Program-made: the position numbers and the translations under genes | Notes under the pieces: generated by a model | Seen by the model: the letters and a program-made list of their open reading frames with translations, nothing else | Told to the model about the DNA's origin: nothing | Databases searched by the model: none | Shown: positions 26,175 to 30,647 of the stretch, piece after piece | How the letters are laid out: every line of letters starts with the position of its first letter | Position numbering within the stretch: the first letter of the stretch is position 1 | Source: Agathobacter sp. | GTDB lineage: Bacteria > Bacillota > Clostridia > Lachnospirales > Lachnospiraceae | Direction of reading: 5' to 3' | DNA length: 64,000 bases | NCBI GenBank assembly: GCA_022772675.1 | Contig: JALEZW010000013.1 | Span: 1 to 64,000, forward strand

Positions 26175-27242
26175 TCATTTTCTCTCAGCCAGATAATTGG
26201 TTAGAAAAGCAATGAAGGTTTCCATCTGCTCATCCGTTCCAATCGTAATACGAAGATAATCGTTAATACGCTCCGGTCTGCTGAAATGACGCACAAAAAT
26301 ATTTTCTGCCTTTAACGCTTCGAACAGCTCCGGTCCCGGCACATCCGGGTGTTTTGCAAAGATAAAATTACTTTTGGAATCTCCGAACGCAAAACCAAGT
26401 TTCTTTAACTGCTCCTTGGTCCACTCTCTCGTCTTAATAATTTTTCCCGTTGTCTCCTCAAAATATGCCCGGTCACGGATTGCCGCTGTCCCAAGGGCGA
26501 TGGTGATACGGTCCATGGTATAAGAATTATAAGAATATTTCACATCATTCAAATACCTGATGAGAGTCGGATTGCTGATGGCAAAACCGATTCGGGAGCC
26601 TGCAAGGGATCGGGATTTGGAAAAGGTCTGTACCACCACCAGATTATCATACTTGTCAATAAGCGGCAGCGCACTCTCCCCACCAAAATCAATATATGCC
26701 TCATCCACAATGACAATGACATCCGGATTCGCCCTGATGATTTTCTCAATCTCTGCAAGTGGCAGAAGCTCGCCTGTGGGTGCATTCGGATTCGGAAATA
26801 CCACTCCGCCGTTTTCTTTTTTATAATCCGACGGCACAATGTGAAACCTTTCATCCAGTGGAATCTGTTCATAGGGAATCCGAAGCATCTGGGCCCACAC
26901 ATCATAAAAAGAATAGGTAATATCCGGAAACAGGATCGGCTTGTCCGAATTAAAAAACGTCAGAAACAGCATGGCAAGCACATCGTCCGAACCCACTCCC
27001 ACAAAAACCTGTGAGCTGTCTACCTGATAAAAATCTGCAATTCCCTTCACCAGATCGGTGACCGCCGGATCCGGATACAGACGCAGATCATCGGTGTTCG
27101 TATGTAATAAAGCCTCCCTCACCCCCGGTGCCGGCGGATATGGATTCTCATTGGTATTTAATTTAATGATATTTTTCTGTTTTGGCTGCTCTCCCGGAAC
27201 ATAAGGAACAACCTTTCGTATATTTTTTTCCCAGTTTTTCAA
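26175..27242 (-). CDS. hisC: Histidinol-phosphate aminotransferase
   Basis: IKLNTNENPYPPAPGV, VGVGSDDVLAMLF, VIVDEAYIDFGGES, VVVQTFSKSRSLAGSRIGFAI. Confidence 0.95.
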   Translation of the reverse strand: MKNWEKNIRKVVPYVPGEQPKQKNIIKLNTNENPYPPAPGVREALLHTNTDDLRLYPDPAVTDLVKGIADFYQVDSSQVFVGVGSDDVLAMLFLTFFNSDKPILFPDITYSFYDVWAQMLRIPYEQIPLDERFHIVPSDYKKENGGVVFPNPNAPTGELLPLAEIEKIIRANPDVIVIVDEAYIDFGGESALPLIDKYDNLVVVQTFSKSRSLAGSRIGFAISNPTLIRYLNDVKYSYNSYTMDRITIALGTAAIRDRAYFEETTGKIIKTREWTKEQLKKLGFAFGDSKSNFIFAKHPDVPGPELFEALKAENIFVRHFSRPERINDYLRITIGTDEQMETFIAFLTNYLAERK

Positions 27243-27281
27243 TTTTTTGTCTCCTTTTTCTTCTTCCTTTAGTTGCTGTCT

Positions 27282-30200
27282 TTATTTCAATTTACGAATA
27301 ACATCTCCTATTTCTTTTTGATTATCTGGAATATATATTAATAAATTCTCAACCTTACTTTTATTTAATTGTGCATTATTCGAGATGGACTGTCTCTCTT
27401 TCCTCAATTGTCCCTCAATATAAAATTTCAAAAATGTAAAATCATATTTGATTGTATTATCTTTGGGCATAATTGTGCCGGATACATCTGAAATATAAAA
27501 TTCTGTATTGTTATCGAATATTTGTATTGTTCCTGCTTTTGCACCTTTCCTGCTCCAGATTAATGTTTTTCCTTTTAACATTGTTTTTCCCGGAATATTC
27601 TTTTGGACAAAATACGCCGGTCCATCCGTTGCTGCTGTAAATACAGGGATATCTCCCGGATTCTGATATGCATCTTCTTTAGAGAACTGACTTCCCTGAT
27701 ATACATAAAACAAATCCATTATCCTTACAGGTTCATAAATATCAGAACTAATATCACGGGAAAAGAAGTCAACTAATTGTTCTTTGGAAATAGATCCACT
27801 CTGTAGAATTTCCATAATATTTTCTATCATCACAGGCTCTCTCTTTTCTCCTAAATATCGTTCACTATCTACGTTCATGTCAACATCAACTATATTCTCC
27901 AACTTTGAAAAAATAATCTCGCCATCCTCAATTTCAATATAATCTATTTCATCTAACTTAGCCTGTTCTGTCGCAGATAAAATGTATTCATTTTGCAATT
28001 CTTCTTTTACCAAATCAATATCACACAATTTATCCTCCAGTTCTTTCCCGTCAAGTGTACTGAAATATTCCAAGAACTTTTCTTTCAAAGTTTTGCATGT
28101 AATCTTTTTCTTATTGACGCGCTCATATTTCTCCAGCCTAAAAAAGCCCCATTTTTTCCCTGGCACGCAGTCCCAATTCCTGCCATTCCACGTTTCTAAT
28201 CGGCGAACCTGATCCCAATTTGAATCTTTTAAATAAGTTTTTGCATTCCAGGCCCTTTCCAATTTAGAAAAATATTCTAATGTATTGTCATATGATTCAA
28301 AACAAGGTTCGAAATCATTATGCAAAAATTCATTTACCTCTTTCGTTGTACCATCATTTAAAATAACTGGACTTGAGGTTATTTTATTGGTCCTATATCG
28401 ATTCTTGGAATTTGCTCTTCCATCGCACATAGAAATATACATAAATGTACTTTTATCAATTTTTCTATTATAATTAAACTCTTCAGGTGCCAATTTCTGA
28501 AGTACAATGGCATACGTTTTTTCCATTGCATAGGGTGAAAAAGTATACTCCGGCAAACTAACTATTCCTAACACATCGCATCTTGATATCATATAATCTC
28601 TTATAGGCTTATTAGTCGGATTTTCCAATATAGAATCTGGCACAATAATTATAGCAACTCCGCCATCAGATACCTTATCTATCCCTTGCATTTTTCCAGG
28701 TTTTAACAAATCTATACATTCACGTAATGCATTTGCCTCTAACGAGTTCCCATATACTTTTATACCATTTTGCATAATTTGATTTGTAGCATCTGTTACT
28801 TTTCCATAAGGAACATTTGTTAATAATAAATCTACATTTCCCAACTCGTCAGCAGATGATACACCTGTTTTTTCCCTCAATATAACCTTCTGTATAATAT
28901 CTTCATCGCATATTTCATTTTCGCCATAACATTCCATTATATCATCAAGCTCAATTGAAAACTCCCTATCAACATACACTTTTAAAAAATTATTAATATC
29001 TTCTACATTCTTAGATATTTCTCTCATTATCTCTTGTCTTGACGACAATGCCATAATATCATACTTACTATCTTTTTTAGTTTTGTATAAAAAATGCTTT
29101 TTCCAGTTAATTGAAGTATTGACTTTAGATAAATTTGTCTTACCATCTCCAACTAAATACATATTCAATTGTGCTGCCAAAACCCCATTTTTATCAAATC
29201 CATAAATGGAGTTTTTCGTTACCTGATTTATTTCATCATCAGACAAATCAAACTTTTTTCTAATAAAATGAACAAATTCATACAGAAATCCTCCCGATCC
29301 ACAAAATGGATCAACAATATTCTTATATTCCAGTTCATCTTTTGACCACTTCAAATAATTATTATATACAGCTCCAATTAATGGTCGTATTGTATGACGA
29401 GGTGTATAATATTCTCCTTGTTCTTTTTTCACATCCTTCGTTGCAAGTTCTTCATAGATAAATCCATATAAATCCATTCCTCTATCTTGTGATAACTCAT
29501 AAAGCTGAGCTGCACACTCTACATACAGTTTGGAAATCTTATTATCCTCATCACCAATTATCTCTTTTAGCTCAGTCCACATACTATATAAGATTTGTTC
29601 ATATGTTATTTGCGATGATTTTAATTTTTTTATTGCACTATCAATTTCTATGTCTTTTGTTTGGCCATACACAGAAGACAATACCGTCATAACAAAAGCT
29701 TTATTTTTCTGAATTTTCTCACTTCCTCTAATTATTCTGGCTATATTATTGATTAATCCTTTTTCATCCTGTTCTCTATTTATAGCGGTCTTCTTTGGAA
29801 ACTGTTCAAGAATAATTTTACTATTGCTATGAGATGCATCGTCAATTGGTTCGTTATTAATCAATACTTTTTCATTTCCCGTTACCAGTGAATATAATGA
29901 TAAATACACATTCTGACCATCATATACAATTAGAACCAGCTCTTTATTGTGAATCTTCTTTACAAATTTTTTTTGTTCTTCTGTTAAGGATTTACTCAAA
30001 AAACCACTTGCATATTTTCTGATTTGAACAATTCCAAGATGTAAATTACCTGTAGATTCCAGTTCAAGCAGTCCCATTAAATCCTCTGCCTTTTCTCCCG
30101 AAAAGAAATATGCATCACACGATCCCTTCCCCCTTATGCCCGAATTTGCCGAAGGAATTATACTATCCACCTCTATATATCCTGTTCTTTTAACTCTGAA

Positions 30201-30302
30201 AGAATATCCTTTATTATTCATAATAAGTCTAAAAAAACTATACACAATATCTTCATTTGTTGTCTCAGATCCATTATATTTAGGTATCAACATTCTATTC
30301 AT
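27282..30302 (-). CDS. Single-chain N-6 adenine methylase with C-terminal HsdS-like specificity domain (type IIG/I-like R-M protein)
   Basis: GEYYTPRHTIRPLIGAV, motif I VDPFCGSGGFLYEF, motif IV-like LLTNVPYGK, C-terminal TRD-like GSQFSKEDAYQNPGDIPVFTAATDGPAYFV...SNNAQLNKSKVENLLIYIP. Confidence 0.9.
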   Translation of the reverse strand: MNRMLIPKYNGSETTNEDIVYSFFRLIMNNKGYSFRVKRTGYIEVDSIIPSANSGIRGKGSCDAYFFSGEKAEDLMGLLELESTGNLHLGIVQIRKYASGFLSKSLTEEQKKFVKKIHNKELVLIVYDGQNVYLSLYSLVTGNEKVLINNEPIDDASHSNSKIILEQFPKKTAINREQDEKGLINNIARIIRGSEKIQKNKAFVMTVLSSVYGQTKDIEIDSAIKKLKSSQITYEQILYSMWTELKEIIGDEDNKISKLYVECAAQLYELSQDRGMDLYGFIYEELATKDVKKEQGEYYTPRHTIRPLIGAVYNNYLKWSKDELEYKNIVDPFCGSGGFLYEFVHFIRKKFDLSDDEINQVTKNSIYGFDKNGVLAAQLNMYLVGDGKTNLSKVNTSINWKKHFLYKTKKDSKYDIMALSSRQEIMREISKNVEDINNFLKVYVDREFSIELDDIMECYGENEICDEDIIQKVILREKTGVSSADELGNVDLLLTNVPYGKVTDATNQIMQNGIKVYGNSLEANALRECIDLLKPGKMQGIDKVSDGGVAIIIVPDSILENPTNKPIRDYMISRCDVLGIVSLPEYTFSPYAMEKTYAIVLQKLAPEEFNYNRKIDKSTFMYISMCDGRANSKNRYRTNKITSSPVILNDGTTKEVNEFLHNDFEPCFESYDNTLEYFSKLERAWNAKTYLKDSNWDQVRRLETWNGRNWDCVPGKKWGFFRLEKYERVNKKKITCKTLKEKFLEYFSTLDGKELEDKLCDIDLVKEELQNEYILSATEQAKLDEIDYIEIEDGEIIFSKLENIVDVDMNVDSERYLGEKREPVMIENIMEILQSGSISKEQLVDFFSRDISSDIYEPVRIMDLFYVYQGSQFSKEDAYQNPGDIPVFTAATDGPAYFVQKNIPGKTMLKGKTLIWSRKGAKAGTIQIFDNNTEFYISDVSGTIMPKDNTIKYDFTFLKFYIEGQLRKERQSISNNAQLNKSKVENLLIYIPDNQKEIGDVIRKLK

Positions 30303-30324
30303 AAATTATTTCTCCTTTTTACCT

Positions 30325-30353
30325 ATTATAGAACAAATGTTCTGATTATGCAA
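30325..30353 (-). promoter_or_regulatory. Promoter of the R-M-like gene with embedded LexA/SOS-type box
   Basis: Minus strand TTGCAT-(17 bp)-TATAAT; GAACATTTGTTC (30331-30342) lies in the spacer adjacent to -10. Confidence 0.7.
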
Positions 30354-30609
30354 GTTTTTTTCTATAGACATCGTTCATTATTGTTTCATGAACTCTTAGC
30401 CGGGAAAGGTGATTCCTTTATTCTATGAAAAAAAGGAGGATTGCCTCAGTTACGTGAAAATTAAGGTATCAATTCTCAGTAACAGGTCCTATGATTAGTT
30501 TAAAGGACACTATCCTAAAATGCAATAAGCAGATTGAAATAAATTATCGTTGCTGCTCACGGATTTCATACTCTGTTTCCCTCCTTTTGCGAAATCTCCT
30601 TTGCACAAC

Positions 30610-30647
30610 CAAAAACTGCCGGTTATCAAATAACCGACAGTTCCTTT
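30610..30647 (-). terminator. Terminator downstream of galT
   Basis: AAGGAACTGTCGGTTATTTGATAACCGGCAGTTTTT on the minus strand. Confidence 0.75.

What the first reader, a model, noticed from the sequence alone, without database searches (positions are those of the whole stretch)
30325..30353. LexA/SOS-type box inside the core promoter of the R-M-like gene
Seen directly: the minus strand has TTGCAT, a 17-bp spacer and TATAAT, and the palindrome GAACATTTGTTC (GAAC-N4-GTTC) sits in the spacer abutting the -10. Established: Firmicute LexA/DinR recognises GAAC-RNNY-GTTC and represses by blocking the promoter core. Inference: this methylase/specificity gene is DNA-damage-inducible, an unusual control circuit for an R-M-like or defence gene. 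A 12-bp match can also be chance, but the placement is textbook.
Basis: partly seen in the sequence, partly recalled or inferred. Interest (0 to 1): 0.72.

Follow-up and report, generated by a model that had tools for sequence, protein, structure and literature searches.

The report
Restriction gene under DNA-damage control
A gut-type bacterium carries a recently acquired gene for a one-piece DNA-cutting-and-marking enzyme whose promoter contains the same LexA switch that guards its DNA-repair genes, so the enzyme is probably made mainly when the cell's DNA is damaged.

Summary
On the minus strand, TTGCAT-17 bp-TATAAT encloses GAACATTTGTTC (30331-30342), abutting the -10, 28 bp before the ATG of a 1006-aa gene (27282-30302). 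The bare GAAC-N4-GTTC pattern is uninformative (20 in the genome, about chance). The full site is not: with a matrix built from lexA and uvrB promoters of other species of the genus it scores 20.4 bits, with 0 such hits in 5 Mb of random sequence, and its 12-mer equals this genome's uvrB box. lexA is present, with boxes at lexA, recA and uvrB. The gene encodes a single-chain PD-(D/E)xK-like nuclease + N6-adenine methylase + specificity domain (type IIG-like). It lies on a 3.3-kb AT-rich insert between galT and hisC and has no orthologue in about 900 genomes, so conservation of this box could not be tested. LexA-like sites also precede unrelated type IIG genes in the same genus (about 3 independent cases against 0.04 expected; none at 25 type I methylase genes). 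Best reading: a horizontally acquired restriction-modification gene repressed by LexA and induced by DNA damage. A 2014 metagenome study had predicted HsdS-type genes in the gut SOS regulon, so the concept is not wholly new. No expression or binding data.

The parts
30348..30353 (-). -35 element TTGCAT (3/6 to consensus)
   Evidence: read directly
30331..30342 (.). LexA/SOS box GAACATTTGTTC (plus strand GAACAAATGTTC), last 12 bp of the 17-bp spacer
   Evidence: 20.4 bits on a genus LexA matrix; same 12-mer as the uvrB box of this genome
30325..30330 (-). -10 element TATAAT (6/6), directly abutting the box
   Evidence: read directly
30307..30315 (-). ribosome-binding site AAAAAGGAG
   Evidence: read directly
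27282..30302 (-). single-chain R-M gene, 1006 aa: PD-(D/E)xK-like N-terminus (E80-L-E82, Q93xxxY97), N6-adenine methylase (DPFCGSGG, NVPY), C-terminal Methylase_S domain
   Evidence: Pfam PF02384 E=8e-17 and PF01420 E=8e-11; best PDB sequence relative RM.BsaXI; N-terminal motifs from alignment A1
27250..30600 (.). AT-rich insert (29-35% GC, flanks 43-48%) between galT and hisC; edges approximate
   Evidence: galT and hisC directly adjacent in congener G025
30604..30646 (-). hairpin with T-run after galT, likely terminator shielding the R-M gene from gal read-through; ends approximate
   Evidence: z = -3.9
26175..27242 (-). downstream hisC-like aminotransferase, starts TTG 39 bp after the R-M stop with no hairpin between; possibly co-transcribed

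Best explanation
A recently acquired single-chain restriction-modification gene (type IIG-like, R-M-S in one polypeptide) is part of the host's SOS regulon. The LexA dimer sits on GAACATTTGTTC between -35 and -10 and keeps RNA polymerase off. When DNA damage, phage attack, entering single-stranded DNA or the enzyme's own cuts at unmethylated sites produce RecA filaments, LexA cleaves itself and the enzyme is made. Because cutting and methylation sit in one chain, induction raises both together: most likely a low-cost, on-demand defence, with induction also speeding re-methylation of repaired host DNA. Shown: site, placement, LexA gene, matching boxes at lexA/recA/uvrB, domain architecture, foreign composition. 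Inferred: binding, repression, induction, enzymatic activity and benefit.
For: Site exact and in the core promoter. Genus LexA matrix: 20.4 bits, near the top of the training range; 0 hits in 5 Mb Markov sequence, also under the AT-rich island's own composition. Third best of the genome's 20 sites; the uvrB box has the identical 12-mer. LexA present, with boxes at lexA, recA, uvrB and the TIGR03916/TIGR03915 repair pair. C. difficile LexA binds GAAC....GTTY operators in vitro (PMC4234289). Fused R-M-S architecture. Foreign composition. LexA-like boxes upstream of other type IIG genes: 5 of 23 loci (window gene included) at 15 bits or more (4 after discounting a hairpin; about 3 independent) against 0.04 expected; 0 of 25 type I methylase controls.
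Against: No orthologue, so no conservation test for this gene. The -35 is weak. No binding, expression or methylome data. Other IIG boxes are not all in core promoters: G021's lies upstream of the likely promoter, G022/G029 share near-identical upstream DNA, and about 70%-identical relatives (L207, L225) lack the box. The catalytic lysine of the nuclease motif is glutamate here (E-x-E), so cleavage is unproven. The IIG survey was done after seeing two hits.
Confidence: 0.78

Rival explanations
1. LexA control is real, but its main role is silencing: it keeps a costly, self-harming foreign restriction gene off in a new host, and damage induction brings no defensive benefit.
For: Recent AT-rich insert; no orthologue nearby; a box inside the spacer gives tight repression.
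Against: Boxes recur at unrelated type IIG genes, which suggests that induction is useful; silencing alone would be served by a weaker promoter.
Confidence: 0.35
2. The box is a chance match and the gene is constitutive or controlled otherwise.
For: GAAC-N4-GTTC occurs 20 times per genome, about as expected by chance; no orthologue to test conservation.
Against: Full-site score has 0 hits in 5 Mb random sequence; exact core-promoter placement; identical to the uvrB box.
Confidence: 0.08
3. LexA control is real, but the protein is no longer a restriction enzyme: the nuclease motif E-x-E in place of E-x-K is dead, and it works as a damage-inducible DNA methyltransferase.
For: K to E change at the E-x-K position in alignment A1; no Pfam or PDB match for the N-terminus.
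Against: E80, Q93 and Y97 are invariant in the alignment; E-x-E occurs in active nucleases such as BamHI (own knowledge); the frame is intact.
Confidence: 0.25
4. The box belongs to a phage-type or plasmid-type LexA-like repressor instead of host LexA.
For: The genome holds further LexA DNA-binding-domain fragments, one at C59:83765 on the same contig, and several LexA-type peptidase genes.
Against: The site matches host lexA/uvrB boxes of the genus; the insert carries no repressor of its own.
Confidence: 0.05

Closest known systems
[quoted passage not shown] 2014, PMC3998124)
   Same: LexA-type sites in Gram-positive gut bacteria upstream of genes with a type I specificity domain; purely computational
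   Different: that study reports a COG-level metagenomic signal and did not test this site class in vitro; here one complete single-chain R-M-S gene, its core-promoter operator, host LexA and genome context are shown
Bacillus/Clostridium LexA (DinR) regulon genes such as uvrB and recA
   Same: GAAC-N4-GTTC operator; same 12-mer as the uvrB box here
   Different: the controlled gene is a foreign restriction-modification enzyme, not a repair gene
Type IIG / single-chain R-M enzymes (PADLOC REase_MTase_IIG; RM.BsaXI as nearest solved sequence)
   Same: N-terminal nuclease-like domain, N6-adenine methylase and recognition function; RM.BsaXI is the best PDB sequence hit
   Different: specificity domain in the same chain; divergent N-terminus without a Pfam match and E-x-E in place of E-x-K; LexA operator
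Damage-linked control of defence by WYL regulators (CapW/CBASS PMC9122588, BrxR/BREX PMC9122589)
   Same: transcriptional repression of a defence system, with a possible link to DNA damage
   Different: those use a dedicated local WYL regulator; here the host's global SOS repressor
Restriction alleviation of EcoKI (PMC11109961)
   Same: ties restriction activity to DNA damage and repair
   Different: opposite sign and level: proteolysis lowers restriction there, transcription would raise it here

Membership tests
LexA (SOS) regulon, Gram-positive type | GAAC-N4-GTTC operator fitting the clade's own matrix | tested here: met
   20.4 bits, 0 in 5 Mb random
LexA (SOS) regulon, Gram-positive type | operator overlaps the promoter | tested here: met
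   inside the 17-bp spacer, abutting the -10; -35 is only 3/6
LexA (SOS) regulon, Gram-positive type | host encodes LexA and RecA with the same box at their promoters | tested here: met
LexA (SOS) regulon, Gram-positive type | operator conserved upstream of orthologues | tested here: inconclusive
   no orthologue found; boxes at unrelated IIG genes only
LexA (SOS) regulon, Gram-positive type | LexA binding and induction by DNA damage | not testable with these tools
   needs EMSA/ChIP and mitomycin C expression data
Type IIG (single-chain) restriction-modification enzyme | N6-adenine methylase domain with intact motifs | tested here: met
   PF02384 E=8e-17; D331-P-x-C-G-x-G-G and N496-x-P498 invariant in A1
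Type IIG (single-chain) restriction-modification enzyme | recognition domain in the same chain | tested here: met
   PF01420 E=8e-11, residues 856-1004
Type IIG (single-chain) restriction-modification enzyme | PD-(D/E)xK nuclease domain in the same chain | tested here: inconclusive
   E80, Q93, Y97 invariant, but lysine replaced by glutamate; no Pfam/PDB hit; AlphaFold models unusable
Type IIG (single-chain) restriction-modification enzyme | match to a curated IIG family over its length | tested here: not met
   PADLOC PDLC03630 matches only residues 270-383; hence 'type IIG-like', not filed as a member of that curated family
MADS defence system (MAD2 methyltransferase) | score over the MAD2 cut-off | tested here: not met
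   81 bits against a cut-off of 720

The most novel reading that the evidence does not exclude
In this genus, single-chain type IIG restriction enzymes as a class have repeatedly been placed under the host's LexA, making a damage-inducible branch of innate immunity in which restriction is switched on by SOS, the reverse of classical restriction alleviation.
Probability: 0.35. Interest if true: 0.75.

Novelty: new variant of a known kind. Interest (0 to 1): 0.55.

Why it matters
If true, damage agents (antibiotics, phage, conjugation) would raise the barrier to foreign DNA in these bacteria, and undermethylation would feed back on enzyme supply through LexA. Both are directly testable.

Tried and rejected
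Orthologue searches: 117 relatives, 397 family and 399 phylum genomes, one genome-contig scan, plasmids and phages; only generic methylase matches. Viral-contig scans failed four times, so phage carriage in IMG/VR is untested. AlphaFold single-sequence models were poor (pLDDT 31 and 37) and not used. L214's 17.3-bit site was discounted: it lies in a terminator-like hairpin. Bare 12-bp pattern rejected as evidence on its own. MADS membership rejected. Terms such as 'LexA-regulated restriction' gave no experimental precedent in the open-access library; that is not proof of absence.

Full report
What is there. On the minus strand the sequence reads TTGCAT-AATCA-GAACATTTGTTC-TATAAT-AGGTAAAAAGGAGAAATAATTT-ATG. 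The 12-bp palindrome at 30331-30342 fills the last 12 bases of a 17-bp spacer and touches the -10. The -35 is weak (3 of 6), so a consensus scanner does not list the promoter, and it lists no other minus-strand promoter between the gene and galT. A stable hairpin with a T-run follows galT, so the gene probably depends on this promoter.

Is the box more than chance? The bare pattern is not: 0.60 expected in the window, and 20 in the 2.8-Mb genome against 27 for the reversed pattern. I therefore took boxes upstream of uvrB and lexA in other species of the genus, made a symmetric 20-bp matrix from 90 sites, and scored the window site without using it. It gets 20.4 bits, near the top of the training range, with no equal in 5 Mb of random sequence, also under the composition of the AT-rich island. 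The training sites were chosen by core matches, so part of the score is by construction; centre and flanks are not. Among the genome's 20 exact-core sites it ranks third. First is a site upstream of a SocA/Panacea-domain gene, second the uvrB site, which has the identical 12-mer. Other high sites precede a TIGR03916/TIGR03915 DNA-repair pair (two boxes) and recA, while lexA has a cluster of boxes. LexA is encoded. C. difficile LexA binds operators of this form in vitro (PMC4234289).

What the gene is. The 1006-aa protein has an N6-adenine methylase domain and a C-terminal type I specificity domain; its nearest solved sequence is RM.BsaXI. Aligned with four fused relatives, its N-terminus keeps E80, Q93 and Y97 of a PD-(D/E)xK nuclease with QxxxY motif, but has glutamate where the others have the E-x-K lysine. 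No library recognises the N-terminus. I call it type IIG-like: the curated IIG family matches only the methylase core, and the MAD2 model is far below its cut-off.

Origin. GC falls from 43-48% to 29-35% between about 27.25 and 30.6 kb, covering just this gene and its promoter. In congener G025 galT and hisC are adjacent; in other species other genes lie after galT. No orthologue was found in the relatives, family or phylum samples, in genome contigs, plasmids or phages. Operator conservation for this gene is therefore untested, not refuted.

A wider pattern. Two distant fused relatives had LexA-like sites upstream, so I surveyed type IIG genes in the genus and family. Of 23 fused loci five (the window gene included) have a site of at least 15 bits in a fixed region around the frame start, against 0.04 expected from dinucleotide shuffles; of 25 type I methylase loci none does, 0.06 expected. 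One (L214) sits in a terminator-like hairpin and is discounted. L208 and L210 are 95% identical orthologues with near-identical upstream DNA, so about three independent cases remain: the window gene, the L208/L210 pair and L205. Relatives about 70% identical to L208 (L207, L225) lack the box, and the L205 and L208/L210 boxes are not clearly inside a core promoter. This is suggestive, and was noticed before it was tested.

How it most likely works. LexA blocks the core promoter; RecA-stimulated LexA cleavage releases it; the single-chain enzyme is made, raising cutting and methylation together. Binding, induction and activity are inferred. Whether the gain is defence or only silencing of a costly foreign gene is open.

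Relation to known work. Cornish et al. 2014 (PMC3998124) predicted COG0732/HsdS as a new member of the gut SOS meta-regulon; they validated three other sites in vitro. I found no experimental report of a LexA-repressed restriction enzyme in the open-access library. Classical restriction alleviation runs the other way and is post-translational (PMC12707154; PMC11109961). Hence: a new variant of a known kind, of moderate interest.

Noticed in passing
window 26175-27242 (-): The hisC-like gene starts with TTG 39 bp behind the R-M stop with no hairpin between, whereas G025 has an ATG start and a hairpin with a TATAAT-like stretch between galT and hisC; histidine synthesis may be co-transcribed with an SOS gene.
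   Followed up: partly
L026:3487-4084 (G000:C32:7486): The best LexA site of the genome's exact-core set (22.2 bits) precedes a SocA/Panacea-domain antitoxin-like gene inside a sugar-biosynthesis cluster.
   Followed up: partly
L025:3517-6007 (G000:C7:6516 and 6548): Two LexA boxes precede a TIGR03916 radical-SAM / TIGR03915 (DUF4130) putative DNA-repair pair, suggesting this uncharacterised pair is SOS-regulated.
   Followed up: partly
L024:10928-10939 (G000:C49:70927): A GAAC-N4-GTTC site lies in a long inverted repeat upstream of a cytidylate-kinase-like gene; more likely a hairpin than an operator.
   Followed up: no
L023 (G000:C59:79000-87112): Just outside the window the contig end carries a resolvase-like, Y-family polymerase (UmuC/DinP-type) and LexA/cI-like gene cluster; similar LexA-domain fragments lie on C53.
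   Followed up: no
window 30511-30570 (-): Between the galT hairpin and the R-M promoter a ribosome site and ATG open a 19-codon frame (MKSVSSNDNLFQSAYCILG), perhaps a gene remnant cut by the insertion.
   Followed up: no
G000:C55:273-539 and several congeners: A stretch like the first ~90 codons of UvrB lies upstream of the full uvrB gene in several species, an unexplained partial duplication.
   Followed up: no
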